Position numbers and translations under genes: made by a program
Part shown: positions 2,762 to 36,054 of the stretch, one piece after another
Layout: every line of letters begins with the position of its first letter
Numbering within the stretch: the first letter of the stretch is position 1
Virus record (IMG/VR): IMGVR_UViG_3300032238_000336
Location: 1 to 64,000 of that record
Source of the DNA: a virus
Length of the DNA: 64,000 bases
Direction: 5' to 3' (one strand)
The notes under the pieces: generated by a model
Told to the model about the DNA's origin: nothing
Seen by the model: only the letters and a program-made list of their open reading frames with translations
Databases searched by the model: none

Positions 2762-3625
2762 TCAAGCAGTTACAGTAAGTTTTGCAGATGATGAAGTTGC
2801 AGTTGCTCCACCAGTAGATGTAATAACAACTTTATATAGGTTATTATTTGCACTTAGTGGAGGATTAGTAAGAGTTAATGTAGCAGTTGTTCCATTGGAG
2901 TAAATTCCACCAGATGCATTACTGTAAGAAGTTCCACCATTAGTAGAAACTTGCCACTGATAAGTAAGTGCTGCTGCAGGGGTTACAGATGCAGTTACAC
3001 TGAATGTTCCGGTGCCAGTTGTAGCAATTCCAACTGAGGTAGGTTGTGAACTAATGGTAATCAGTCTATCGGGGAACACAGTGTCATCATCAGCATCTCC
3101 TGGTGCAGAATAAGTTGCTGCGGTATTTGAAGTAATTCCAGACATCGCAACAAGAACTTCACTCTTAACTCTTAAATTATTATCAGCATCCATATAAGTA
3201 TGAATACCCACCCATCCTGAGTGGGCTAGTTTATATTTAGTTCCAGAAGTTCCAGCTTGTGTCTGTGCTTCATATTCATCTACACCATAAACTTTAGTAG
3301 ATTGACCAGGTGAAGTGGTTGTAATTCCAGCATAATTGGAATCAAACATAGTAAATTTTGGCTTTTGCGAGATGGCATATGAAGCACCTGCAATAGTAGC
3401 ACCGGAAAGATATCTGGTGGTTGCAATATAAAGTTCAGTATCATTGGTAACTGACTTAATTACACCTTCTCCAAAAGTCCCACCGGCTCCAATAGTAATT
3501 ACTGCACCAGTAGTAATCCCAACTGCAGTAAACGAAGTTCCAGCTCCAGTGATTCTACCATCACTATATCTTACAGTAACTGTTCCTGGTGAGTAAATAC
3601 TATCCGATTTTCCCCAAAGAGCCAT
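2762..3625 (-). CDS. Virion protein with C-terminal Ig-like domain
   Basis: The start at 3625 (MALWGKSDSIYSPG) is chosen because GGGGAAAA precedes it; an in-frame extension to 3688 would run through a terminator hairpin. The product has 287 residues. The N-terminal half is glycine/threonine-rich beta structure with motifs seen in cyanophage structural proteins (TVTVRYSDGRITGAGTSFTA). Residues about 205-287 form an Ig-like fold (QPTSVGIATTGTGTF, YQWQVSTNGG, LYKVVITSTGG). Ig-like domains in phages usually decorate capsids or tails and bind weakly to carbohydrates on the host surface. A head- or tail-decorating role is inferred. A perfect late promoter box lies 29 bases upstream. Confidence 0.75.
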   Translation of the reverse strand: MALWGKSDSIYSPGTVTVRYSDGRITGAGTSFTAVGITTGAVITIGAGGTFGEGVIKSVTNDTELYIATTRYLSGATIAGASYAISQKPKFTMFDSNYAGITTTSPGQSTKVYGVDEYEAQTQAGTSGTKYKLAHSGWVGIHTYMDADNNLRVKSEVLVAMSGITSNTAATYSAPGDADDDTVFPDRLITISSQPTSVGIATTGTGTFSVTASVTPAAALTYQWQVSTNGGTSYSNASGGIYSNGTTATLTLTNPPLSANNNLYKVVITSTGGATATSSSAKLTVTA

Positions 3626-3653
3626 TTTATTTTCCCCGTATGTTTTATAAGAG

Positions 3654-3661
3654 TATTTATA
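3654..3661 (-). promoter_or_regulatory. Late promoter box TATAAATA
   Basis: On the minus strand this is a perfect match to the T4 late promoter box used by gp55-RNA polymerase. It lies 29 bases upstream of the Ig-domain gene start and directly abuts the U-run of a terminator, so termination and re-initiation are fused. Confidence 0.75.
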
Positions 3662-3688
3662 AAAAATGGAGAGCATAAAACTCTCCAT
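3661..3688 (-). terminator. Rho-independent terminator after the 61-residue membrane protein gene
   Basis: On the minus strand there is an 8-bp perfect stem (ATGGAGAG / CTCTCCAT) with a 7-base loop, followed by six T. It lies 23 bases past the stop at 3711. The T-run continues straight into the TATAAATA box of the next gene. Confidence 0.85.
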
Positions 3689-3710
3689 CTATATTGTTTA
3701 TTTTTGTAAT

Positions 3711-3896
3711 TTAAGGAGTTGGGTCTGTTGCTCCACCCTTAATTGCTTTTTGACGAATTTGCAAAAGAACAAATGAAACAAGTCCATTTGCTTTTATTTT
3801 TGGATTTGCACCAAGAAACTCAGAAAGAATCAAAAGAATTGTCATAATTGCGGCTTGATTTGCATTATAAAATGCTAAAAGTGCTGCGATTGACAT
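3711..3896 (-). CDS. Small hydrophobic protein, possible membrane or holin-like protein
   Basis: The product has 61 residues, with a hydrophobic helix at about 4-27 (AALLAFYNANQAAIMTILLI) and a second, weaker one around NGLVSFVLLQI. The C terminus is short and polar. AGGTC precedes the ATG. It is a single-gene unit with its own late promoter box at 3920-3927 and a strong terminator at 3661-3688. Size and topology fit a small phage membrane protein such as a holin, but nothing is diagnostic, and the same layout occurs in minor virion proteins. Confidence 0.65.
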   Translation of the reverse strand: MSIAALLAFYNANQAAIMTILLILSEFLGANPKIKANGLVSFVLLQIRQKAIKGGATDPTP

Positions 3897-3919
3897 AATG
3901 ACCTCGTATGAACTATAAG

Positions 3920-3927
3920 TATTTATA
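3920..3927 (-). promoter_or_regulatory. Late promoter box TATAAATA
   Basis: A perfect late box lies 24 bases upstream of the 61-residue membrane protein gene and just past the stop codon of the basic 461-residue protein. Confidence 0.75.
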
Positions 3928-3929
3928 AA

Positions 3930-5315
3930 TTAGCACTTCCATCTTCGTCTTGCGGCTAGTCCTCTTTCACCGTGCCATTTTCTACTACGAGCACAAAAAC
4001 TCTTACGACGTTTTGCTGCCTTAGACCCAGGTTTTACATCACCAGTAACAGGTGCTTGAAGATGCGAACCAGTTGCAAGATTGTATTTGTCCCTACCTTT
4101 TTGAGTAAGTCCACCACCTCTTTCAACTGAAAGTTTCTCACCCCTGCCTACAGATAGAACAGGTCCTTCCTCTTTAATCACTCGTTTTTTTTTACTCTTT
4201 TTCTTTGGTGGGACTCGTATACCCGATTCTTTCATTTTTGCAAGAAGACCTGAAGTTCTCGGTCTTCTAGTATTATCAAAACTTACTGAAGTAGTATCAA
4301 GAGTTCCTTTTGAATGTTGCCTAAAAGTCTCATTGTCTTGACTTTCATTAACAGGTTCAGTTTCCCCCATCATATAATCCGCAACAGTATCAATATGGTC
4401 TACTGCTTTTGTGATTTTAGATTGAACCCACGCAGGCAGTTGTTGATTATTTGATTTTATTTTTTTACGAAGTGATTTAACTGCTCTTTCAATTGTAGAA
4501 AGTTCATTACGAGCCATTCCTCCTTCACTATCAACTTCTTCAATAATAGTTGGAAATAAAGTAATTTTATTTATTCCTGTAAATACATTTACAATTCTAC
4601 CATTATCGTCCTTTTTCTTCTTTCTTCTTATATCTCCTAGTTCGCAGAGAAACTCTTCCCTCCAACAAGAGTATTCTTCATTAGTAGACTTATCAAATTC
4701 AGATTGCTTAAAATCATATTTTTTCTTTGGCATTCTGTTTAATATTTCTCTCTGCCTAATACTTTTATTTGCTCGTGCCATTTGCCCCAAAGTCCTACCC
4801 GCTGGAGGTAGCCTTGGTTGTGTCATCGAAGTTTTTATTTCTGCAGATTTCTCTTGTGCCTTTTTAGTTCCCGCTTCAATTTGAGCTTTTCTTTTCGCCT
4901 TTTGTCTTTTTTTTATATTGTGAAAAAGTGCAGATGCACCAGCTTTAGCAACTCCACCTACAAGAGACGCAGCGTTCCCTACTAACTTTGCGCCAGCAGT
5001 AGTGTCAGAGTCTTTATGAGATATCCTCTGAATTTTGATGTTTTTAAGTGGTTCGGTTATTCTACCCTTCTGTTCATTTGTTCTTCGTCTTCTATCTTTT
5101 TCCAAAGATTGGGCCTGCTGCCATCTTAATCTTTCTTTTTTATATGCTAAAGTATCTTGTTGATATTTACGATATTTTTTAGCATTCTTAGATCTTTCCT
5201 CTGCTTTTGCTTCTCTTTCATCTTTTCTTGCAGCGGCATCTCGCTCTCTCTTCAACACTGAATCTGGCTTATCAAAAGGACCTTCGAATAGTAATTCTTC
5301 TCTCCAGTTTGCCAT
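3930..5315 (-). CDS. Highly basic virion-associated protein with repeated WREE motifs and a conserved basic C-terminal domain
   Basis: The ATG at 5315 lies two bases after the stop of the preceding gene, so it is probably coupled. The product has 461 residues and is very rich in Lys and Arg throughout. It begins MANWREELLFEG, and a similar segment (CWREEFLCELGD) recurs near residue 218. Both place a Leu-x-Glu where T4-type prohead protease gp21 could cut. The last ~60 residues (GGLTQKGRDKYNLATGSHLQ ... RRKSFCARSRKWHG) form a conserved basic module that I recall from many marine phage proteins, probably DUF6321. A DNA-binding internal head protein is plausible; this is inference. Confidence 0.6.
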   Translation of the reverse strand: MANWREELLFEGPFDKPDSVLKRERDAAARKDEREAKAEERSKNAKKYRKYQQDTLAYKKERLRWQQAQSLEKDRRRRTNEQKGRITEPLKNIKIQRISHKDSDTTAGAKLVGNAASLVGGVAKAGASALFHNIKKRQKAKRKAQIEAGTKKAQEKSAEIKTSMTQPRLPPAGRTLGQMARANKSIRQREILNRMPKKKYDFKQSEFDKSTNEEYSCWREEFLCELGDIRRKKKKDDNGRIVNVFTGINKITLFPTIIEEVDSEGGMARNELSTIERAVKSLRKKIKSNNQQLPAWVQSKITKAVDHIDTVADYMMGETEPVNESQDNETFRQHSKGTLDTTSVSFDNTRRPRTSGLLAKMKESGIRVPPKKKSKKKRVIKEEGPVLSVGRGEKLSVERGGGLTQKGRDKYNLATGSHLQAPVTGDVKPGSKAAKRRKSFCARSRKWHGERGLAARRRWKC

Positions 5316-5317
5316 TT

Positions 5318-6517
5318 TTATTTTGTAGAACATTTACTATTCATATTTAGTTTTTTCTTAGGCATAGTTTCTTTAATTTTAACTCCAGTATAAGAAACTA
5401 CAGGTTGACCTGGAGTCATACTTTGTAATTTTTCACGATACTTATCAGTTCCAACTTCATAAACTGCTTCTCTTATATTTTGCAACCAAGATTTAAACAT
5501 CACTCCTTCATTAGTTACACAGATAAGATAGTTAGTCCCACGACGAAGAACTCTTCCTTGAAGTCCTGTATTTAAGTTTTCTATAATACTACCGATAGGA
5601 TATAAGTTATTTATTTTATAGTTCATCCTCAACCCTTCCATATCAAGTTCAGGGGCAATTCTCCATAAATCATAACTTTCTCCAAGTTGCATAGCATTTG
5701 CAACTGAATTGAAAAGTTCTTCTTTATCAACTCTTTTCATACGGGTAGGAAGATTGGCAGAGAACGATTCAAAGTTTCCTTCTGCTACTGCTGCTCTTAG
5801 TTGTGCAGAAGAACCAGCACCACCAACATCACTGTCAGGGTCTTTCACTCCCGCAGGAATAACTTCAATTGTATTAAATTGATAGGTTTCTCCTTCTCCC
5901 CTATGAGCTAAACTTTGAAACTCTCCAACTCTATCTGAACCTACAACTACTTTTACATCGGTAAATCCGTCATTTGATAAACTTGTAAGAACATCAAACA
6001 AAGTAGTTGTATCACTATTGTCTATAATATAATCTGCATACTCGGGATACATTGTCCTCATATACTTTATCTTGAGTGTGGGATTGAGAGGATTGGTCTC
6101 TTTATCCTCAATACGACTTGGGTAGATGCGATATTCTGACCCATTATTTTTTGCTTGATTAAATCCAAATTTTAAAAGTTGTTCGTGAGCCTTTCCTGGA
6201 GGATTAAATTTACCAAGAACTACTACTATACCTTTACCTTGCTCTTGTACCTCTGGTTGTTGTTGAACTTGAGGTTGTTGAGATGTAAGTGCTGGTTGGG
6301 GTTGTTTTTTAGTATCTTTTTTAATAGATTTATCTTCAGCACCTTTATTGTCTCTTCCTTTAAATACTTGAAGTTTACTACCTATAGTTTTGGCTACTAA
6401 CTTACCTTGATTGTCATACCAATCTCCGTGCCCATCCCCTCGCAATCCCATTTGTTTTGCTTGGGACGATGCGATTGTCTCTAATGCTTCGGATATAAAT
6501 TGACGAAACGACTTCAT
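5318..6517 (-). CDS. Nucleotidyltransferase-like protein (NMN adenylyltransferase/cytidylyltransferase superfamily) with candidate capsid-targeting N terminus
   Basis: The product has 399 residues. It starts MKSFRQFISEA, closely resembling the capsid-targeting peptide of T4 internal proteins (MKTYQEFIAEA), with a gp21-type cleavage site Ile-x-Glu. A Gln/Lys-rich linker (residues about 60-95) leads to a nucleotidyltransferase domain at about 95-275. That domain has GKFNPPGKAHEQLL in place of the usual FNPPTxGH motif, then RIYPSR, KVVVGSDRVGEF and the SSxxLR-type motif SSAQLR. Such enzymes join a nucleotide to NMN or a related phosphate. The TxGH motif is degenerate (GKAH), so activity is uncertain. 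About 110 C-terminal residues are unassigned. Perfect and near-perfect late boxes lie just upstream. Confidence 0.72.
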   Translation of the reverse strand: MKSFRQFISEALETIASSQAKQMGLRGDGHGDWYDNQGKLVAKTIGSKLQVFKGRDNKGAEDKSIKKDTKKQPQPALTSQQPQVQQQPEVQEQGKGIVVVLGKFNPPGKAHEQLLKFGFNQAKNNGSEYRIYPSRIEDKETNPLNPTLKIKYMRTMYPEYADYIIDNSDTTTLFDVLTSLSNDGFTDVKVVVGSDRVGEFQSLAHRGEGETYQFNTIEVIPAGVKDPDSDVGGAGSSAQLRAAVAEGNFESFSANLPTRMKRVDKEELFNSVANAMQLGESYDLWRIAPELDMEGLRMNYKINNLYPIGSIIENLNTGLQGRVLRRGTNYLICVTNEGVMFKSWLQNIREAVYEVGTDKYREKLQSMTPGQPVVSYTGVKIKETMPKKKLNMNSKCSTK

Positions 6518-6534
6518 ATTATTGAGTTTTTAAA

Positions 6535-6542
6535 TATTTATA
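6535..6542 (-). promoter_or_regulatory. Late promoter box TATAAATA
   Basis: A perfect late box lies 18 bases upstream of the nucleotidyltransferase-like gene, so the late message would have a very short leader. The 122-base gap 6518-6639 holds this box, a second variant and no gene. Confidence 0.75.
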
Positions 6543-6564
6543 AATTTTATCTAAAGCATTTATA

Positions 6565-6572
6565 TATTTATG
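6565..6572 (-). promoter_or_regulatory. Second late promoter-like box CATAAATA
   Basis: A one-base variant of the late box lies 23 bases upstream of the perfect copy in the same gap. It may be a tandem late promoter or a chance match in AT-rich DNA. Confidence 0.4.
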
Positions 6573-6639
6573 CCTAATAATAAATGTGTGAGTTTTATTT
6601 ACAAAATCAATAGTAAATCATAAAGTCTATTATATTACA

Positions 6640-7050
6640 TCAAATATCTCCTTCGTCCCTATGTTCGGAGTAATATGCATCAAAATTTCCTCCAGGATAT
6701 CTTTTATACAACTTGTCAATATTGGTTTGAATGACTTCATCAAATGAAACTTCAAGAGCAATGCAGGCTTGTGCCACATACCACATTGTATCACCCAATT
6801 CTTTAATAAGATGAGTTCGAGTTTCTTTATCCCACGGCTTTCCTTGAAAAATCATTTTTTTTACAATTTCAAGAAATTCTCCACCTTCTGCGTTGATACC
6901 AACTCCTGAAGTTAGAAGTCGTTCAATATTTGCTCCCTTTTCATCTAACTCAACCATACGGTCAGAAAGAGCAAGAAAATCTTTAGATGCATCAGAGGTT
7001 ACTGCATCTACGAATTCTTGGTATTTAATGAAATCAATACGTTTTGTCAT
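6640..7050 (-). CDS. mazG: MazG-like nucleoside triphosphate pyrophosphohydrolase
   Basis: The product has 136 residues. The C-terminal half carries the MazG-type metal-binding pattern: GGEFLEIVKKM (E-x2-E-like), then HLIKELGDTMWYVAQ (E-x2-D), ending with KLYKRYPGGNFDAYYS. MazG proteins hydrolyse non-canonical or surplus nucleoside triphosphates to monophosphates; cyanophage versions are thought to act on nucleotide pools during host takeover. The ATG lies one base after the stop of the gp41 helicase gene, so the two are co-translated. No late promoter box precedes it, which fits early or middle expression. Confidence 0.88.
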   Translation of the reverse strand: MTKRIDFIKYQEFVDAVTSDASKDFLALSDRMVELDEKGANIERLLTSGVGINAEGGEFLEIVKKMIFQGKPWDKETRTHLIKELGDTMWYVAQACIALEVSFDEVIQTNIDKLYKRYPGGNFDAYYSEHRDEGDI

Positions 7051-7051
7051 A

Positions 7052-8425
7052 TCAGAATTTAATATCTTTGAATTTTGTTGTTTTGTCTTCTTTAAAAGAA
7101 TACTCGGGTTCTAATACTTCGTCAAGTGCTTCCATCTGTGCATTTTGTTCCACATCATATAGTCGCATCTTATTCCTATCTAAACCTACTACAAATCTTT
7201 TATACTTAGAAACATCATTATCTCTATTTTTAATTTGCTTAAACATAATTTGTCCTAGTTTATCAAGTTCTTCGGTTTTAATCATCGCAACAATCAAATC
7301 CACAGTTGCAACTGTTCCGAAACTTTCTGATGTATCAGTCATATCTGGGTCACTTGTAGTTGCTCCACTACGGGTCATCTGTGTAGAACTAAACACAGGG
7401 ACCTTATATTCGACAGCAAGTGCTCTGAGTTCCTCAGAGATACTTTTCACATAGGTGTATGAGTTAACTCCGGCATTATTTTTATATCGACTAGAAGCAC
7501 AAATATTCATATAGTCAATAAAAATAATATCAGGATGGAAATGCTTCTTCAAAGATAGTTCATTAAGAAGTGCTTTGAAGTGACCTACGTGTGCAGAAGA
7601 AGGAGCATATTCTTTGATAATCAGTTTACCGTGAGTTTTCTTTGCCATCTTTACAACTTTACTTTCAAAAGAACTCTTGGAAAGTTTATCAATCTCCGAA
7701 ATATTCACATTCAATAGATTTGCGTCAATACGTTGTGCGATTTTTTCTTCTGACATTTCAAGAGTGATGTAAAGCACATTCTTACCTTGAGCTAAGAATG
7801 CTGAAGCAAAAGAGCACATCGCAAGTGATTTACCTACATTAGGACCTGCTAGAATAAGAGATAATGTTTTTTTACATAGTCCTCCACCAGTGATTTTATT
7901 GAAATACTCAAGGTCAAAAGGAAGTCTTTCTTCACTTCGGGTATAATACTCATAACGTCTTTCATAATCATCAATATAATCGTGACCAATATGGTCATCA
8001 AATGATATTGACAATGCCTCCTGAAGAATACCAGGAATTGCATCTCTACCTTTCTTATCGTCCCCACCATCTGCAATCTTAATACTTTCCATTAATGCAA
8101 GATAGATTGCTCTATCTCTGCACCACTTCTCAGTAGTGTCCATCAACCACTCTAAATCTACGTGACTATCATCAAGAATTGAAACATAATCACAAATAGT
8201 CTTATATGTGTCTTCTGTAATATCCGTTCTTTTTTCTGCTTCAATTAAGACTACTTCTTTAGTTGCAAGGTCTTCATAAGCTACAATAAACTTACTAATT
8301 TCTTCAAATACTACTCGTTCGTGCCGATTATCAAAATAATCAGGATTGATAAAAGGCAATACTTTTCTACAAAAATCATTATTGAATAACAGATTTCTAA
8401 GAATAGTTGTTTCAATTTTTTCCAT
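7052..8425 (-). CDS. 41: Replicative DNA helicase, T4 gp41-like (DnaB family)
   Basis: The product has 457 residues (T4 gp41 has 475). The RecA-like motor carries Walker A GPNVGKS near residue 195, an H1a-type LEMSEEKIAQRIDANL, Walker B FIDYMN and a sensor region STQMTRSG. This hexameric 5'-3' helicase opens the phage replication fork and carries the gp61 primase. The gene is uninterrupted; this locus is worth noting because gp41 is a frequent site of split inteins in environmental phages. It starts 11 bases after the hydroxylase stop and is followed almost without gap by mazG. Confidence 0.95.
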   Translation of the reverse strand: MEKIETTILRNLLFNNDFCRKVLPFINPDYFDNRHERVVFEEISKFIVAYEDLATKEVVLIEAEKRTDITEDTYKTICDYVSILDDSHVDLEWLMDTTEKWCRDRAIYLALMESIKIADGGDDKKGRDAIPGILQEALSISFDDHIGHDYIDDYERRYEYYTRSEERLPFDLEYFNKITGGGLCKKTLSLILAGPNVGKSLAMCSFASAFLAQGKNVLYITLEMSEEKIAQRIDANLLNVNISEIDKLSKSSFESKVVKMAKKTHGKLIIKEYAPSSAHVGHFKALLNELSLKKHFHPDIIFIDYMNICASSRYKNNAGVNSYTYVKSISEELRALAVEYKVPVFSSTQMTRSGATTSDPDMTDTSESFGTVATVDLIVAMIKTEELDKLGQIMFKQIKNRDNDVSKYKRFVVGLDRNKMRLYDVEQNAQMEALDEVLEPEYSFKEDKTTKFKDIKF

Positions 8426-8436
8426 TATTTAATAAG

Positions 8437-8988
8437 TTAAGGATTACGTTTGTGTTCAGGAACATCAAATACGAAAGTAATTCGTATATTTTCCCCTATA
8501 TTTTTTGCACTATGTGGCATTTTATTGTTAAACCAAAAAAGAGTTCCTGGATTTACAACAATCATTTCATCTCCCACAGTATACTCATACACTCCTTGAA
8601 TGGAAAGATGGTATCTGTCTTTTGTAAGATAATAAGTTCCTTCATCAATGTGAGTTCCAACAATTTCACCAACAGGCAAAGCAAGAAAAGCACAACGACG
8701 TATTTTTTTAAAATAAGTTTTTAAAAATTTAAAAACCTCTGTATGTTTCTCATATGCCGGGGTTTGAATACAAATTTCAGTATCACCAACATACTGTCCT
8801 TCTTTTTCTATTCCACCCATTATCAGTTGAAGAACATCAACCGTAACAGTATATTTTGTTGGGTCAAGTTGTTCTATTTTTTTATCTTTAATATTCTTTT
8901 GCGAACCCCAATCTTCTGGATATTGTTTTATTTGTTCTAAAATTTTAGATACATCAATTCCAGTTTTTATAACTCGAATATTTTTCAT
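8437..8988 (-). CDS. Aspartyl/asparaginyl beta-hydroxylase-like 2-oxoglutarate/Fe(II) oxygenase
   Basis: The product has 183 residues. The iron-binding triad is visible: HID in VGTHIDEGTYYL near residue 110 and the distal His in MPHSAKN near 159. Arg in ENIRITFVFDV follows and would bind 2-oxoglutarate. The order and spacing match the Asp/Asn beta-hydroxylase family, where GTLFWFNN lines the double-stranded beta helix. The substrate is unknown; a host or phage protein side chain is the family precedent. The ATG overlaps the stop of the prolyl-hydroxylase-like gene (ATGA), so two different oxygenases are translationally coupled between UvsX and gp41. Confidence 0.85.
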   Translation of the reverse strand: MKNIRVIKTGIDVSKILEQIKQYPEDWGSQKNIKDKKIEQLDPTKYTVTVDVLQLIMGGIEKEGQYVGDTEICIQTPAYEKHTEVFKFLKTYFKKIRRCAFLALPVGEIVGTHIDEGTYYLTKDRYHLSIQGVYEYTVGDEMIVVNPGTLFWFNNKMPHSAKNIGENIRITFVFDVPEHKRNP

Positions 8989-23577: not shown

Positions 23578-24972
23578 CTACATCAGATTTTTTACTGTAA
23601 CTCTACGGTAGTAGTTATTGCTGTTTCTCTTAATAACTCCCAGGTCTGCATCAAGACCGCCTGCAAATGGGTTAGCAACCATACCATAACGGGTCTTAAA
23701 TCCGATTTTTGGTTGGAAGCTTCTCTCACCAACGGCACGAACCATTTGGAGGGGAACATAAGGGCAATAGAACAATCCAGCATCATAAGGTGAAGAACCC
23801 TTGTATCCTGCAACATAGTACTGAGTACCAGAGTTGTTAGCAGCATATGGGTCAATATAAACTTTGAACTTACCTTGAAGAACTCCAGCAAAAGTATTGC
23901 CGGTGTCATCAACATTCAAGTTTGCATTAAGTGCTGGGGTGTAATCAAGAATACCAGCGTGTGCAAGAGCAGAAGCGATGTCTGCAGAGCACATAATGAT
24001 ATTACCCTTTCCTCTACGAGTTGTTTGTGCGATGAGGTTAGCATCACGCTCGATTTGGAAGATAAGACCTTTGAACTTCTCAACTGACCAACGACCGTTG
24101 CTGTCAACGTCAAGGTCAAAAATACCTTTAGTTGCAACGTTGTTCTGAGCACCAGGTTTAGCAATGCTATAGATGGTACGGATAACTTCTCTGTTGATTT
24201 CGGCAAGGATTTCAGTTGAGAGAATGTTAGCCAACTCAGCTTCTGCATTCAGACCGTGGATAGCTTTGAGGTCTTGTGCAAGTTCTAAACTGTACTCAGC
24301 TTTCAGAGCACGGGACTTCGCAGTAACCGATACTCTCTCAATGCTGAGAGACATTTCGTTGAACTGATTATTGCTATCATAAGTGCTACCGAGACTTTCT
24401 GCCTCAGCAGTGCTCATTCCTTGACCTACGTTATAAGCACCACTACCATCAGGGTTCAGAAGACCGGGGTTTCCACCTGATTGTGCAGTAGTACCAAGTC
24501 CAACAGCACCATCAACCCAACCCTGGTCATTATCAAAGGTAGAGTTTTGTCCTGAGAATGCGGTATCTACTTCATTGTAGAATGTTTCAGCACCAGACTG
24601 GTTCTTATACTTAGAACGCATTGCGAAGATCAAGCTTACAGGTCCACTCATTGGTTGAACACCAGCTAAGTCATATGCGACCAAGTTGGGCATTGAACGA
24701 CGAATGAGGCTGATAAGAACAGGGTCGAAACCAGCTACAGGTCCGGTTGCATCAGCACCGTAACTAAAACCAGCAGCATTAGGTGCTCCTTGAGTATTAG
24801 TAGTAGGTGATTCTGAGAGGAATTCTCTTTCTTCTCTAAGTGCTCTTTCTTGGTTCTCTAGCAAGATAGCAGTCACAGCTCTACGATGTGAATCTCCAAT
24901 AGATTCTACTCCATCGAAATCAAGGAGCGGTGCCCACTTTTCTTGCAATTGTTCTGCATTGAACATTTGCAT
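23578..24972 (-). CDS. 23: Major capsid protein, T4 gp23-like
   Basis: The product has 464 residues. The N terminus is MQMFNAEQLQEKWAPLLDFD, with GAGGTAAATCAA before the ATG at 24972. A possible gp21 cleavage site (FLSE/S after residue 54) fits the removal of an N-terminal peptide in T4-type head maturation. The capsid-fold region includes RRSMPNLVAYDLAGVQPMSG and, near the C terminus, GFKTRYGMVANPFAGG. Base composition is less AT-rich than that of its neighbours, as is common for this highly expressed gene. No late box lies in the 55 bases upstream, so transcription probably comes from the gp22 promoter. Confidence 0.96.
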   Translation of the reverse strand: MQMFNAEQLQEKWAPLLDFDGVESIGDSHRRAVTAILLENQERALREEREFLSESPTTNTQGAPNAAGFSYGADATGPVAGFDPVLISLIRRSMPNLVAYDLAGVQPMSGPVSLIFAMRSKYKNQSGAETFYNEVDTAFSGQNSTFDNDQGWVDGAVGLGTTAQSGGNPGLLNPDGSGAYNVGQGMSTAEAESLGSTYDSNNQFNEMSLSIERVSVTAKSRALKAEYSLELAQDLKAIHGLNAEAELANILSTEILAEINREVIRTIYSIAKPGAQNNVATKGIFDLDVDSNGRWSVEKFKGLIFQIERDANLIAQTTRRGKGNIIMCSADIASALAHAGILDYTPALNANLNVDDTGNTFAGVLQGKFKVYIDPYAANNSGTQYYVAGYKGSSPYDAGLFYCPYVPLQMVRAVGERSFQPKIGFKTRYGMVANPFAGGLDADLGVIKRNSNNYYRRVTVKNLM

Positions 24973-25027: not shown

Positions 25028-26275
25028 TCACTTTTTAGAAACTTTTGCGAAGGCATTGACATAAGCTTCCATAACTCCAGTTGGAGCAGAATATGGAACC
25101 GAATCAGTAGTCTCTTCAACAAGATAATCTTGTCTGTTTCTGGTTGGAGCACTAGTATAAGTAGGGAAATAAGATTCCCTTAGAGTTACTAGTTTCTCAC
25201 GATATTCTCCTTCACCATCAAACTCAACATTTTCAGCAAGAGAGGCAAGCTTATCTTTTTGGGAAATTGCAAGACCTTCAGCTACTTCTGCAAAAATTAC
25301 ATCAGTTGCTGACTCTGCTAATCTTTGGTTTAGAGCAACATTTTTTTCAATTTGCTCGTTGAGTTTTGTCTCCATATCATCTAGTTTTTCTACCATACTC
25401 TCAAGTACATCATATCTTTCTTCAGGGATTGAAACATAATGATCTTCAAAAAGTTCTTTCATTCCATTTAGGAATGATTCAGTCATTTCAGATTTGATTC
25501 CGGTTTCGATTGCGAGTGCATTTTCTTTAATCCACTCGTCGGCAACATATTCAAGATAAGAATCTACACGCTCAGTAAGTGCCTCAGTGATTTCTTGAAT
25601 TTCTTCAGAAAGTTGATCTTCATACTGACGAATGATTGCCTCTTCGATTTGTTCAGTTCTGGCATTAAGAGCTGCTTCAAAAACAGTTCTTGCCTTGAAC
25701 TTAAACTCTTCAGAAAGGTCTTCACCAGAAAGAAGAGCAGCCACATCTTCTTCAATCTGGTCTTCAATCATTTGTAGTTCTTCTTTTACATCTTCATCAT
25801 CTTCATCATCTTTAGATTCTCCACAACTCCCTTCATCATAGTCATCATTTTTTTCATTTTTTCCTTTCTTATCTTTCATCATTTTTCTTTTTTTTGATTT
25901 AGGAGTCTCATCCACCATATCTTCATCATCTTCTTTAGCCTCTAAGATTTCATCTTCATCATCATATTCGGATTCTTCATCTACTGGATTCTTCATAGTA
26001 GGCATAGGATCTGCAGCTTTTGCTTTAGCATTAACTACATTTCTTACCTGTTGTAGGACTGCGGCAGCATCTTTAAGTTTTGCTGGACCTTCAGGATCGT
26101 TTGTATAATTTTCTGGAGTTGGACCACCTAGGTCTTCCCAGCTACCAGTTTGACCATCAGGGATACCTGTAGTCAACTTAGGCATCGGGTCTCCCGACTT
26201 TGAACCTGCATTTACTGCAGTGTTAGATTGTTTAGTGCCTATTTCCATTTCTTGTAAATTTTTACCACGAGACAT
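25028..26275 (-). CDS. 22: Prohead core scaffold protein, T4 gp22-like
   Basis: The product has 415 residues, longer than T4 gp22 (269). An N-terminal Gly/Pro/Asn-rich part is followed by an acidic and lysine-rich stretch at about 95-160 (DDEDEILEAKEDDEDM). A long helical scaffold at about 160-370 follows (LSEEFKFKARTVFEAALNA, IREYEDQL-like coils). It forms the core around which gp23 assembles and is degraded by gp21 during maturation. GGAGAG precedes the ATG and a perfect late box lies 36 bases upstream. The neighbours gp21 and gp23 confirm the call. Confidence 0.92.
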   Translation of the reverse strand: MSRGKNLQEMEIGTKQSNTAVNAGSKSGDPMPKLTTGIPDGQTGSWEDLGGPTPENYTNDPEGPAKLKDAAAVLQQVRNVVNAKAKAADPMPTMKNPVDEESEYDDEDEILEAKEDDEDMVDETPKSKKRKMMKDKKGKNEKNDDYDEGSCGESKDDEDDEDVKEELQMIEDQIEEDVAALLSGEDLSEEFKFKARTVFEAALNARTEQIEEAIIRQYEDQLSEEIQEITEALTERVDSYLEYVADEWIKENALAIETGIKSEMTESFLNGMKELFEDHYVSIPEERYDVLESMVEKLDDMETKLNEQIEKNVALNQRLAESATDVIFAEVAEGLAISQKDKLASLAENVEFDGEGEYREKLVTLRESYFPTYTSAPTRNRQDYLVEETTDSVPYSAPTGVMEAYVNAFAKVSKK

Positions 26276-32413: not shown

Positions 32414-32421
32414 TATTTATA
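32414..32421 (-). promoter_or_regulatory. Late promoter box TATAAATA for gp18-gp19
   Basis: A perfect late box lies 37 bases before gp18. A second variant (GATAAATA) lies at 32400-32407, closer to the gene. Confidence 0.72.
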
Positions 32422-32438: not shown

Positions 32439-33611
32439 TTACATATAGTTCCACATATAAGAAGTGTCTTCCTTGCTATCAGCAGTAATCCAAGTATCTC
32501 CATCAGTATCGACAAAAATTTTTTCTTCTTCATTTAGTCCGTCTATTATAAAACCAAACGGTGTCATATCTTGTTCAATTTGGTCTTTCTGTTCTTCATA
32601 TATTCTTTTACGAACATCATTGTTCGTCATTTCTTTAAAATATTCTTGAACTATTAACCAAGAAAAAATTACCAAACACATTGCAAGGTCATCATTATAT
32701 CCATCATCTGCTTCAAAAGAATTATTTTTGCTGATAAATGTGGTAAGTTCACTTATAATATCATAATCTCGTATTAAGAGTTTGTCATCTTCTATAATAG
32801 TTTTAAGATTAGAACAACCTACCCGTTTTACTTGTTTAGACATTTTTATACCAAATTGTGATTTTCTTCCAGAAAACCCTTGACCCACTACTTGGCCTGC
32901 ACGACCTCTCATAGAGCACATCAGAACATTATCATACTCTAAATCCATATGAAGTTCTTTTGCTACTTGCTCTCCAATATCATTTACCTCAATTAAACAA
33001 TATGCGTTGTTATATGACTTTGCAACTTTTTCAATAACTGTTGAATATACAAACGGTTTAATTTCATTATTTCTATATTTTCCCACTACTTTATACGGAA
33101 TATTAGTTATATCAAATATTATAAATGCGTGATAATCATTTTCAGTTCCTCTAGATACATCAACAGTCATTAAATAGTTATGGTCTTCTTTAGGAGTTTC
33201 GTATACATCTAATCCTGCATTTTTAGTAATAGGTTCATCGAATATTAAAGTTTTAAGTTTTGCTGCAGTAACTAAAGTATCAATAGAACCTAAAAAGTTA
33301 CAGTTATGTGATACAATACTATTAGCATAATAGAGATTATTATTCCCTACATCTATGGGGTCATAAAGCCATATACCTTCCTCTACTATTTCATTATACA
33401 CAATTTCTTTACCATCTAATATATCACCAATTTGTAATTGTTCAGCTGTGACTTTAGATTTCCCGAAGGGGTGAGTATTTGAACACTTTATTTCTGTATT
33501 GTCATTAAATATTATCTGATGATAAAAAGGTTTATATACTTTCTGAATTCCTTTAAAATCTACAAACCCAGTTGGAGATAATATTTTATATCCAGAATTT
33601 GATTTAAACAT
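32439..33611 (-). CDS. 17b: Terminase large subunit (gp17), C-terminal half: split-intein IntC plus nuclease domain
   Basis: The product has 390 residues. Residues 1-103 are the C-terminal part of a split intein (see 33303-33611), ending SIVSHN. The C-extein starts at Cys104 (CNFLGSIDTLV) and runs 287 residues. The terminase nuclease is complete: first Asp in LMTVDVSRGTENDYHAF, Glu in CLIEVNDIG, last Asp in GYNDDLAMCL. T4 gp17 cuts the concatemer and fills the head; this half supplies the cutting activity. It must be joined to the half encoded at 34183-36054 by trans-splicing to give a continuous QEFE-CNFLG sequence. Its ATG lies inside the last codons of the endonuclease gene, so translation is coupled. 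Confidence 0.93.
   Translation of the reverse strand: MFKSNSGYKILSPTGFVDFKGIQKVYKPFYHQIIFNDNTEIKCSNTHPFGKSKVTAEQLQIGDILDGKEIVYNEIVEEGIWLYDPIDVGNNNLYYANSIVSHNCNFLGSIDTLVTAAKLKTLIFDEPITKNAGLDVYETPKEDHNYLMTVDVSRGTENDYHAFIIFDITNIPYKVVGKYRNNEIKPFVYSTVIEKVAKSYNNAYCLIEVNDIGEQVAKELHMDLEYDNVLMCSMRGRAGQVVGQGFSGRKSQFGIKMSKQVKRVGCSNLKTIIEDDKLLIRDYDIISELTTFISKNNSFEADDGYNDDLAMCLVIFSWLIVQEYFKEMTNNDVRKRIYEEQKDQIEQDMTPFGFIIDGLNEEEKIFVDTDGDTWITADSKEDTSYMWNYM
33303..33611 (-). mobile_element. IntC: 103-residue C-terminal fragment of an atypically split TerL intein
   Basis: Residues 1-103 of the downstream frame (MFKSNSGYKILSPTGFVDFK ... NTHPFG ... LYDPIDVGN ... SIVSHN) are intein blocks B to G. The block B His is in NTHPFG, and the end is the canonical His-Asn followed by Cys+1. 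The start MFKSN and the order of motifs match my memory of the IntC of the Ace Lake AceL-TerL intein, which is also about 104 residues with an N-fragment of about 25. Most split inteins divide instead near the C-terminal end, so this early break is the rare class. Confidence 0.9.
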
Positions 33612-34173
33612 GGTTCCAAGTCTTCCTCTCTATAACTTGTCTGATATTTTGAGGTGTTACTCCATATACTTCAGAATATTTAATAGAAAATAATTGTTCG
33701 TATGACATAATTTTTCCATTTTTCATCTTTTTTCCTACCCCATTTATTTTAATTTTCTGGTCATATAACTGCCTAAGACATATTACGATGGAAGCATCTA
33801 ATTTGGTCGGTCTCCAAACTTTACCTTTCCTAATATTACTAAAATGAGTAATAGTCTCTTCATTAAAGCACCCAGATTTATCTTTATTCCATGGAGTATA
33901 TCCTTTTTTTACTCCACCAATACCCTTCCTACTATATGATTCAAATCCCTCTCCACCTGGAGACCTATTCCATCCATCAGAATATGTATTATATTCTGAA
34001 ATAAATTCTATTTCTTTTAATTTAGCAATATTTTTATCTTCTGTTGAAAATATAATTTTAAATTCATGTAAATCTTTAGTATTTTTATGAGCACATCTTC
34101 TCTTATTTGGATTAATTGTTTGTCCAATATATTTAATTATATTATCTTGTTTCAAAGCGTAAATATAGTACAT
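33604..34173 (-). CDS. Free-standing GIY-YIG homing endonuclease within the split terminase gene
   Basis: The product has 189 residues. The GIY-YIG module has YYIYALKQDN and KYIGQT (residues 2-19), Arg25/26 in NPNKRRCAHK and a candidate catalytic Glu at 54 or 56 in LKEIEFISEYN. The C-terminal part (WNRSPGGEGFES, KKGYTPWNKDKSG, NIRKGKVWRP) looks like NUMOD3-type DNA-binding repeats. It lies exactly between IntN and IntC, starts 9 bases after the IntN stop and overlaps the IntC start by 8 bases. Homing would copy the endonuclease, and perhaps the split itself, into uninterrupted terminase genes. All catalytic residues appear present, so it is probably active. Confidence 0.9.
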   Translation of the reverse strand: MYYIYALKQDNIIKYIGQTINPNKRRCAHKNTKDLHEFKIIFSTEDKNIAKLKEIEFISEYNTYSDGWNRSPGGEGFESYSRKGIGGVKKGYTPWNKDKSGCFNEETITHFSNIRKGKVWRPTKLDASIVICLRQLYDQKIKINGVGKKMKNGKIMSYEQLFSIKYSEVYGVTPQNIRQVIERKTWNHV

Positions 34174-34182
34174 AGTTTTATT

Positions 34183-36054
34183 TTATATAGAACTGTATAG
34201 TTCTTCAAGTGTAATATTTTTTTCAATTCCATCCTTTAATATAGTAACCAAAGTATCTCCACCCAAACATTCAAATTCCTGTTCAAACTGTTCTTTTGAT
34301 GTGTTTGCAATCGTCTGTTCTTTCCACTTTGCATCCCTTCCTGGAACTTCAGACCAATGCACCTCAGTGGGAACGTATTCATTTTTACCTCGTTCTGCAT
34401 TTACCCACATCTTATAAAACATATTCATACCCTTGGGGGTAGAAATGATTATAACTTTTGTATTCTTACCTGAAGTAATTGTAGGATATACAGAACTAAA
34501 GAAGTCCTCTGCAATATTATTTTGAATGAACGCAAATTCGTCCAATACTAGAATATTGTATGCACCACCACGAACAGCAGAAGCAGATGTAGATGCCGCA
34601 ATTATCTTTGAACCATTATCTAGTTCTAATGATGCTTTGTTCCATATTTTAACCCCGTGCTGCATCCATTTAGGAAGGTTTTCATAAGCAAGTTGAAGCT
34701 TACCTAAAATTTCTTTAGCAGTTTGAGCTTTGTTTGCAAGAATAGCAATATTTACGTTATCGTTGAATAGAATATAATGTAAAATATATGAAGTAACAGT
34801 TGTAGTATTATGAGTAGGTATAAAAGTATTTCCACACAAGAATAAATGGTCTTCTGAATCTACTTTAATACAAGCAACAGGAACACTTTCTACTTTTTCT
34901 ATTTTTTGTATGTAATGCCGTTGTTCTTGTGGTCTGGTAGATTTAGTATTATTAATAGCATTTATTTTTCGGGGCAGATTAAATACACATTTTTCAGTAG
35001 TAAAAGATACCGTATGGTAATAACACTCTTTTATTTTTTTGCATCTTACTTTAGATTTTATTCCTAACGAAGATAGTAACTCAACAAATTGTAAAATAAA
35101 CTCATAATTTTTTTGATAGAACTCAAAGGACTTTGTATGGAGTTTTACTGAACCATCAGTATCCATCAATCCACGAAGAAGTTCTAGTCTATCTTCATAG
35201 GAAGACCTTAAATAATCTAATGGTATGTGTTTATTTTGCAATAAATTATAAGATTTTAATTTTGATTGCAATTCTTTTATTTTAAACCGAATACAATTAT
35301 TATCTTTTCTCTCATACTCCACATTCATTTTAGTTTTATAATACTCATAATCTTCTTTATGAGATATAATTCTCCCATCACGAGAGTATCCATCCCCTAA
35401 CCAAACACCTAGAAGATATGGGTCAATATTTAAATTCTTTTTAGTAAAATTGCAAGGATTTGATTTATTGATATATAATGTTCCTTGAACTCCTTTACCC
35501 CTAATATTGTTGGTTTTATTTTGATATCTATCAAAAATTTCACCTGAAGTTATTACTTTTTTACCAGTTCTCCAATATGAACTATTCACTTCCCATAAAT
35601 GGTCAGAATCTGCAATAATTTCTTCTCCATTATCAAAATATAATTTATAACAATCGTGGTTATACATAGTTTCAGTTTTCAGAATTACTGAAACTGGATT
35701 TCCAGAAGGAGACATAATTTTATCCCCTTCCTTAAGGTCTCCCATAGTAGTCCACCCATCAGGAGTAGGTATCGGAGTATCTAATGCTAATGCTTTCCCA
35801 CACTGCCTAGGCATTTTACAGATATTAAATCTGTTCTTATGAAATCTTTGAACTAGTTTCTCTTGAAACTTCCTCATTTTAAAAGGAACTACACCTTCGT
35901 CAACACTTACAATCTTTACATAATTTTTACAAAAATATAAAGGGTCTTTATTGCACTTTATATACTCAGCAATTTGTTCTTTAGTAAACTCCTGCTTTGT
36001 ATTTGCTTTTTTTAGATGAGGATTACCAAGATACTGTTCAGAAGGAGGGCTCAT
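34183..36054 (-). CDS. 17a: Terminase large subunit (gp17), N-terminal half: ATPase domain with P-loop intein and terminal IntN
   Basis: The product has 623 residues in five parts. Residues 1-87 are extein up to MPRQCGK, the first half of Walker A. Residues 88-416 are an intein with endonuclease. Residues 417-595 are extein beginning TTTVTSYILHYI, with Walker B NILVLDEFAFI and the coupling motif IIISTPKG. Residues 596-623 are IntN of a second, split intein, followed by a stop. Joined to the 287-residue C-extein at 32439-33302, the mature terminase would be 87+179+287 = 553 residues, a normal length for this phage group (T4 has 610). gp17 is the motor that packages DNA through gp20. The start overlaps the upstream gene as ATGA. 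Confidence 0.93.
   Translation of the reverse strand: MSPPSEQYLGNPHLKKANTKQEFTKEQIAEYIKCNKDPLYFCKNYVKIVSVDEGVVPFKMRKFQEKLVQRFHKNRFNICKMPRQCGKALALDTPIPTPDGWTTMGDLKEGDKIMSPSGNPVSVILKTETMYNHDCYKLYFDNGEEIIADSDHLWEVNSSYWRTGKKVITSGEIFDRYQNKTNNIRGKGVQGTLYINKSNPCNFTKKNLNIDPYLLGVWLGDGYSRDGRIISHKEDYEYYKTKMNVEYERKDNNCIRFKIKELQSKLKSYNLLQNKHIPLDYLRSSYEDRLELLRGLMDTDGSVKLHTKSFEFYQKNYEFILQFVELLSSLGIKSKVRCKKIKECYYHTVSFTTEKCVFNLPRKINAINNTKSTRPQEQRHYIQKIEKVESVPVACIKVDSEDHLFLCGNTFIPTHNTTTVTSYILHYILFNDNVNIAILANKAQTAKEILGKLQLAYENLPKWMQHGVKIWNKASLELDNGSKIIAASTSASAVRGGAYNILVLDEFAFIQNNIAEDFFSSVYPTITSGKNTKVIIISTPKGMNMFYKMWVNAERGKNEYVPTEVHWSEVPGRDAKWKEQTIANTSKEQFEQEFECLGGDTLVTILKDGIEKNITLEELYSSI
34186..34269 (-). mobile_element. 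IntN: 28-residue N-terminal fragment of the split TerL intein
   Basis: After extein residues EQEFE the frame reads CLGGDTLVTILKDG and ends after 28 residues. Cys1 and the xGDTxV pattern are intein block A. The fragment is very short, like the 25-residue IntN of AceL-TerL. The extein joint E-C is restored if this IntN pairs with the IntC that ends SHN-C at 33303. Confidence 0.88.
34807..35793 (-). mobile_element. Contiguous class 3-type intein with LAGLIDADG endonuclease, inserted in the terminase P-loop
   Basis: The 329-residue intein starts ALALDTPIPTPDGW (Ala1, not Cys) and ends FIPTHN before Thr+1. It carries the WCT triplet that defines class 3 inteins: Trp154 in DHLWEV (block B), Cys395 in VACIKV (block F) and Thr414 in PTHN (block G). 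Class 3 inteins start splicing with the block F Cys rather than residue 1. Two LAGLIDADG-type motifs are visible, YLLGVWLGDGY and LLRGLMDTDGS, so a homing endonuclease is built in. Splicing restores GK-TTT in Walker A. Confidence 0.9.

What the first reader, a model, noticed from the sequence alone, without database searches (positions are those of the whole stretch)
32439..36054. Fractured terminase gene: an atypically split intein whose halves lie in separate genes
The terminase ATPase half ends in a 28-residue intein start (Cys1, xGDTxV). The nuclease half begins with the remaining 103 intein residues ending SHN before Cys. The extein sequences join without gap as QEFE-CNFLG and give a full-length terminase. 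An early break after ~28 residues is rare among natural split inteins. The known AceL-TerL from an Ace Lake metagenome has a similar 25/104 division and the same host protein; I recognise its IntC motifs here from memory. This locus shows the system inside a phage genome, with intact flanking genes.
Basis: partly seen in the sequence, partly recalled or inferred. Interest (0 to 1): 0.92.

Follow-up and report, generated by a model that had tools for sequence, protein, structure and literature searches.

The report
Phage motor gene split by inteins
In this T4-like phage fragment the gene for the DNA-packaging motor is broken into two genes by a split intein (protein pieces that find each other, join the two halves and cut themselves out) with a DNA-cutting gene in the gap; it is a new member of a known kind, and comparison with relatives shows that the whole package has moved between phages.

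Summary
TerL (gp17) is encoded as two ORFs ending and starting with a 28-aa IntN and a 103-aa IntC. Both match the two chains of the solved atypical split intein Cat (6dsl; E 9.5e-5 and 8.7e-42), the consensus design based on AceL-/GOS-TerL. With both inteins removed, the 553-aa extein aligns without a gap at either insertion site to intein-free cyanophage TerLs.

Terminase would therefore need one cis and one trans splicing event.

Relatives show that IntN-endonuclease-IntC behaves as one mobile unit. The cassette tree groups window, L001, L002 and L003 (100/99), while the extein tree rejects grouping window, L001 and L002 (AU 8.6e-5). The endonuclease is under purifying selection. HNH-headed endonucleases in the same slot share its C-terminal tail. 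Related loci at this site include contiguous, fused, free-standing and nuclease-free forms; a Campylobacter phage shows unlinked halves at another site.

The kind is known (AceL-TerL, fractured genes, annotated split gp17 in Aeromonas phage PX29): a new member, not a new system. Splicing and cleavage are untested.

The parts
35794..36054 (-). TerL extein, part 1 (residues 1-87, up to Walker A ...PRQCGK)
   Evidence: Aligns with intein-free cyanophage TerL; PF03237 Terminase_6N over the ORF; T4 gp17 structures 3cpe/3ezk/2o0h
34807..35793 (-). Contiguous class 3 intein (329 aa) with LAGLIDADG endonuclease domain, inserted in Walker A between GK and T; Ala1, W67/C308/T327 triplet, ends THN|T
   Evidence: Starts and ends exactly at the ends of solved class 3 DnaB intein 6bs8 (E 2.3e-26); LAGLIDADG_3 3e-10; gap-free extein on removal
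34270..34806 (-). TerL extein, part 2 (rest of the ATPase domain, ends QEFE)
   Evidence: Terminase_6N 7.5e-17; gp17 structures
34183..34269 (-). IntN, 28 aa (CLGGDTLV...LYSSI) plus stop codon
   Evidence: 6dsl_A CatN, E 9.5e-5
33604..34173 (-). GIY-YIG-type homing endonuclease, 189 aa, with a C-terminal tail of about 105 aa shared with HNH-headed endonucleases of the same slot
   Evidence: phrog_314 homing endonuclease 8.5e-11; Pfam GIY-YIG 18 bits, below the cut-off 22.6; conserved Y/YIG/H/E/N positions; dN/dS 0.1-0.2; tail
33604..33611 (-). 8-nt overlap ATGTTTAA: IntC start codon and endonuclease stop codon, conserved in the cassette relatives
33303..33611 (-). IntC, 103 aa (MFKSNSGYKILSP...IVSHN)
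   Evidence: 6dsl_B CatC E 8.7e-42; AF2 model and Foldseek
32439..33302 (-). TerL C-extein (nuclease half, CNFLGSIDT...), 287 aa
   Evidence: Terminase_6C 1.2e-14; 69% identical to TerL of Synechococcus phage DSL-LC02

Best explanation
The phage makes its packaging motor from two genes. Shown by sequence: the ATPase half ends in an S2-type IntN, the nuclease half starts with the matching IntC, the exteins are complete and join without a gap, and an endonuclease gene lies between them. Inferred: the ATPase-half precursor removes its class 3 intein from the Walker A loop in cis; IntN then docks on IntC, and Cys1, Cys+1 and Asn103 carry out class 1 trans-splicing that yields the 553-aa TerL. Inferred with comparative support: the endonuclease cuts intein-free TerL alleles near the EFE|C site during co-infection, and repair copies IntN, endonuclease and IntC together, so the cassette spreads as one unit while protein splicing hides it from selection. 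Its C-terminal tail probably carries the DNA recognition, and the nuclease head is replaceable.
For: Both intein halves match the two chains of Cat; fold; catalytic positions present (Cys1, block-B His47, Asp84, His102-Asn103, Cys+1) and His47, His102 and Asn103 invariant over 20 IntCs, Asp84 nearly so; gap-free 553-aa extein. Mobility: the cassette tree joins window+L001+L002+L003 (100/99) but the extein tree rejects window+L001+L002 (lnL difference 115, AU 8.6e-5) and puts L002 beside intein-free Prochlorococcus phage Syn1. Third-codon-position identity of L001 and L003 is 67-77% in IntN, endonuclease and IntC against 42-46% in the exteins. Endonuclease and IntC are under purifying selection (dN/dS about 0.03-0.2). 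All seven distinct full-length relatives of the endonuclease found in IMG/VR lie between IntN and IntC of TerL. HNH-headed nucleases in the same slot share the tail (7.7e-21 to 2.1e-30).
Against: No splicing, cleavage or proteomic data. Few loci, all from metagenome assemblies, so chimeric contigs cannot be fully excluded. Pfam GIY-YIG for the window protein is below its curated cut-off (18 against 22.6 bits). The DNA target of the endonuclease is unknown.
Confidence: 0.88

Rival explanations
1. The two halves work as a non-covalent two-subunit terminase and the intein pieces are dead remnants, as in phage Aeh1, where an endonuclease splits nrdA and the pieces function unspliced (from published work, cited in PMC3322345).
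For: Genes in pieces that function without splicing exist in T4-like phages.
Against: All splicing positions are intact and IntC evolves under strong purifying selection (dN/dS 0.03-0.13); the junction has no gap or overhang against intein-free TerL; the close homologue Cat splices fast (PMC11766414).
Confidence: 0.05
2. The split intein is inherited vertically and the endonuclease is an unrelated free-standing gene that happens to sit in the gap.
For: The cassettes have diverged (43-89% endonuclease identity); some relatives keep the split with no endonuclease in the gap (L076 gap 24 nt, L049 gap 116 nt).
Against: The extein tree rejects the cassette clade; IntN, endonuclease and IntC share raised third-position identity; the ATGTTTAA-type overlap of stop and start is conserved in all distinct cassettes tested; all full-length relatives of this endonuclease found in IMG/VR are in TerL split inteins.
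Confidence: 0.1
3. Assembly or sequencing artefact: one contiguous intein-endonuclease gene broken by errors.
For: Contiguous and fused forms exist in relatives.
Against: The same stop and start arrangement occurs in independent contigs from different samples with 43-80% identity, and PX29 and VP-1 are sequenced isolates with halves in separate ORFs.
Confidence: 0.01
4. Splicing is used as a switch: trans-splicing (and the class 3 intein in Walker A) delays terminase activity until late in infection.
For: Both inteins must leave before TerL can work; mycobacterial class 3 and class 1 DnaB inteins respond differently to stress (PMC6195587, abstract).
Against: Both inteins are absent from the closest isolated relatives and vary independently among environmental relatives (class 3 present in L001 and L113, absent in L002, L003, L007), which fits a parasite better than a required control device.
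Confidence: 0.08

Closest known systems
Cat-TerL (PDB 6dsl) and its natural models AceL-TerL and GOS-TerL
   Same: Same host protein, same N-extein residues EFE, same early split after the first helix (S2 site; IntN 25, 37 and 30 aa, IntC about 104 aa), Cys1/Cys+1 as in AceL; clear homology of both halves.
   Different: Natural sequence of its own (CatC 62% identical over the structural alignment); here the full gene, the endonuclease and the flanking genes are seen. AceL and GOS sequences were not held for direct alignment.
Aeromonas phage PX29 gp17A/gp17B (GU396103)
   Same: Isolated T4-like phage with gp17 split by an N-intein and a C-intein and a GIY-YIG endonuclease (record annotation).
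   Different: Endonuclease is fused in frame to the front of IntC instead of being a separate ORF; IntC only 33.9% identical.
AceL NrdHF split class 3 intein (PMC7891396) and the fractured genes of Dassa et al. 2009
   Same: Fractured-gene layout in a probable phage contig with an intervening GIY-YIG gene.
   Different: Other host gene (nrdHF), class 3 chemistry and canonical 98/48 split. Dassa et al. could not be read here.
Vibrio phage VP-1 and Vibrio phage 1.244 TerL inteins
   Same: Same insertion site; the GIY-YIG protein of VP-1 is homologous to the window's along its length, including the tail (32%).
   Different: Endonuclease fused in frame behind IntN.
Class 3 DnaB inteins of mycobacteria (6bs8, 6rix)
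   Same: The Walker A intein of the window matches them from first to last residue and has the WCT triplet; GK|T is the classic P-loop insertion site (PMC5050341).
   Different: Sits in TerL and keeps a LAGLIDADG domain; a separate element from the split intein.

Membership tests
Atypically split TerL intein (AceL/GOS/Cat kind) | Short IntN (15-37 aa), split after first helix | tested here: met
   28 aa; in the AF2 model of contiguous homologue L045 the helix is 23-32 followed by a less certain loop, and strands resume at 37
Atypically split TerL intein (AceL/GOS/Cat kind) | Homology of both halves to a member | tested here: met
   6dsl_B 8.7e-42, 6dsl_A 9.5e-5
Atypically split TerL intein (AceL/GOS/Cat kind) | Catalytic residues: nucleophile 1, block-B His, Asp, His-Asn, Cys+1 | tested here: met
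Atypically split TerL intein (AceL/GOS/Cat kind) | Direct alignment with AceL-TerL or GOS-TerL | not tested
   Sequences not held; only Cat, their consensus, was available
Atypically split TerL intein (AceL/GOS/Cat kind) | Trans-splicing activity | not testable with these tools
   needs co-expression
Fractured gene with intervening homing endonuclease | Host gene in two ORFs, each with one intein half, endonuclease ORF between | tested here: met
Fractured gene with intervening homing endonuclease | Element mobile: phylogeny differs from host gene, intein-free alleles exist | tested here: met
   intein-free cyanophage alleles
Fractured gene with intervening homing endonuclease | Endonuclease cuts the intein-free allele | not testable with these tools
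   needs a cleavage assay
GIY-YIG homing endonuclease | GIY-YIG domain with conserved positions | tested here: met
   phrog_314 8.5e-11 and conserved residues; Pfam 18 bits is below the cut-off 22.6, GIY-YIG-headed nucleases in the same slot reach 31 bits
Class 3 intein (Walker A element) | No nucleophile at position 1 and WCT triplet | tested here: met
   Ala1, W67, C308, T327 aligned with 6bs8

The most novel reading that the evidence does not exclude
The early (S2) split of TerL inteins marks a second endonuclease insertion point of the intein fold. Nucleases with one constant target-recognition tail and interchangeable heads (GIY-YIG or HNH) invade a contiguous mini-intein there, fracture the gene, carry the three-part cassette between phages, and can be lost again while the split stays, after which the gene halves can drift apart in the genome. 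The atypical split inteins used in protein chemistry would be products of this cycle.
Probability: 0.55. Interest if true: 0.62.

Novelty: new member of a known kind. Interest (0 to 1): 0.45.

Why it matters
Inteins with a very short IntN are prized for protein labelling, yet the characterised ones come from metagenome data with little said about context. Here the full arrangement is visible, with a dedicated endonuclease whose relatives sit only in this slot, an intein-free sister allele (phage Syn1 beside L002) for a homing test, and a series of intermediate forms that makes the origin of early-split inteins testable. The same gene carries a second intein of a different class in its ATP-binding loop, so an essential motor depends on two splicing reactions.

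Tried and rejected
tRNA and Rfam scans of the window gave nothing, so no intron explains the gap. PDB search with the endonuclease: no match. The endonuclease in 50,697 phage records: only VP-1 along most of its length, plus weak partial matches; in GTDB genomes only two weak partial matches. Direct reading of Dassa 2009, Bachmann 2015 and Stevens 2018 failed (not held). An artefact and a non-spliced two-subunit terminase were considered and set aside (see rivals). Whether L001 alone groups with the window in the extein tree is only weakly rejected (AU 0.023), so the mobility claim rests on the three-member clade and on third-position identity.

Full report
What is there. On the minus strand three ORFs lie head to tail between a tail sheath gene and the genes upstream of TerL: 34183-36054 (623 aa), 33604-34173 (189 aa) and 32439-33611 (390 aa). 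The first carries Terminase_6N and a LAGLIDADG domain, the third Terminase_6C, the middle one a GIY-YIG-like domain. The neighbourhood (major head protein 23578-24972, scaffold 25028-26275, DNA polymerase, helicases) is that of a T4-like phage; the record is a virus contig of 73,399 bases.

The split intein. The last 28 residues of ORF 1 and the first 103 of ORF 3 match the two chains of PDB 6dsl, the consensus atypical intein Cat. The model of IntC has 6dsl as best fold match. Removing both inteins gives a 553-aa protein that aligns without gap at both insertion sites with TerL of Synechococcus phages DSL-LC02, S-SKS1 and S-SRM01. Published IntN lengths are 25 (AceL-TerL), 37 (GOS-TerL) and 30 (Cat), split after the first helix (PMC11766414, PMC13014065). 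In a naturally contiguous relative (L045) the model shows that helix at 23-32 and strands again from 37, so the window's break falls in the same place.

The second intein. Residues 88-416 of ORF 1 match the solved class 3 DnaB inteins exactly from their first to their last residue, with Ala1 and the W-C-T triplet. It interrupts Walker A between GK and T, the classic P-loop site (PMC5050341). It comes and goes independently of the split intein in relatives (present in L001 and L113, absent in L002, L003, L007).

The gene in the gap. The 189-aa protein belongs with phage homing endonucleases (phrog_314). All full-length relatives found in IMG/VR (13 contigs, seven distinct sequences, 43-76% identical) lie between IntN and IntC of TerL. 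The stop codon of the endonuclease overlaps the start of IntC by 8 nt (ATGTTTAA; ATGTCTAA in L110) in the window, L001-L007, L110 and L113. dN/dS of the endonuclease is 0.09-0.20: it is kept as a working protein.

Mobility. For the pair window/L001 the cassette is more alike (endonuclease 76%, IntC 80%) than the C-extein (59%), while for window/L113 it is the other way round (47% and 60% against 64% and 75%). The cassette tree unites window, L001, L002 and L003 (100/99); the extein tree rejects window+L001+L002 as a clade (AU 8.6e-5) and places L002 beside intein-free phage Syn1. For L001/L003, third-position identity is 67-77% across IntN, endonuclease and IntC and 42-46% in the exteins. The three parts therefore travelled together into different TerL genes.

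A series of forms. At this insertion site there are contiguous mini-inteins (L045, L046, L068, L079, L095, L101), an endonuclease fused behind IntN (Vibrio phages VP-1 and 1.244), free-standing endonucleases (window and relatives), an endonuclease fused before IntC (Aeromonas phage PX29), and splits with almost nothing in the gap (L076, L049). The slot holds GIY-YIG, HNH_3 (L034, L056, L082, L092) and other restriction-fold nucleases (L047, L073). The HNH proteins share the C-terminal tail of about 105 residues with the GIY-YIG ones (7.7e-21 to 2.1e-30 against no significant control ORF), which points to the tail as the target-recognition part. In Campylobacter phage CPX a related intein at the Walker B site joins halves that lie 22 kb apart on opposite strands.

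Mechanism, shown and inferred. Shown: intact halves, intact catalytic positions, seamless exteins, conserved gene order, transfer of the cassette as a unit. Inferred: cis-splicing of the class 3 intein, trans-splicing of the split intein, cleavage of intein-free alleles by the endonuclease, tail-directed targeting.

Novelty. The kind is known: AceL-TerL, GOS-TerL and Cat; fractured genes with an intervening GIY-YIG gene (AceL NrdHF, PMC7891396); gp17A/B of PX29 in GenBank; intein-interrupted terminases in Campylobacter phage IBB_35 and Salmonella phage Maynard. The papers that could be read do not describe the head exchange on a shared tail, the unit transfer of this cassette or the unlinked halves in CPX, but key papers were not held, so no claim of priority is made. 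As a finding the locus is a new member of a known kind, worth more for what it makes testable than for surprise.

Noticed in passing
L131 (JN132397.1, 2602-3318 minus) and L014 (25271-26599 plus): Campylobacter phage CPX: the two TerL halves lie 22 kb apart on opposite strands; the first ends FIDE|CVAGDTKITV...NRIG (30-aa IntN), the second starts with IntC ending SHN|CAFI. Related IntCs occur in 42 Campylobacter phage records.
   Followed up: partly
L021 (HM246721.1), 3502-8778: Campylobacter phage IBB_35 TerL appears to hold three inteins, two of them split with nucleases between; the paper described an intein and an intron.
   Followed up: partly
L034, L056, L082, L092, ORFs between IntN and IntC: HNH_3 endonucleases share the C-terminal tail of the window's GIY-YIG endonuclease: head exchange on one tail.
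   Followed up: yes
L076 (4477-4492), L049 (4385-4501): Split inteins whose gap is nearly empty: the nuclease seems lost while the split stays.
   Followed up: partly
L121, 1648-5317: A ribonucleotide reductase gene broken by a canonically split intein with a GIY-YIG ORF between the halves.
   Followed up: no
L019 about 4890-5330 and L020 about 1760-2160: Contiguous relatives of this intein at the Walker B site (DE|CAF) in Nitratidesulfovibrio phage SRB7757 and Vibrio phage vB_VmeM-32; the latter and VP-1 also carry a P-loop intein.
   Followed up: partly
window 32414-32421, minus strand: TATAAATA, like a T4 late promoter, between the TerL C-half and the tail sheath gene; seen by eye in the sequence, not tested against chance.
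   Followed up: no
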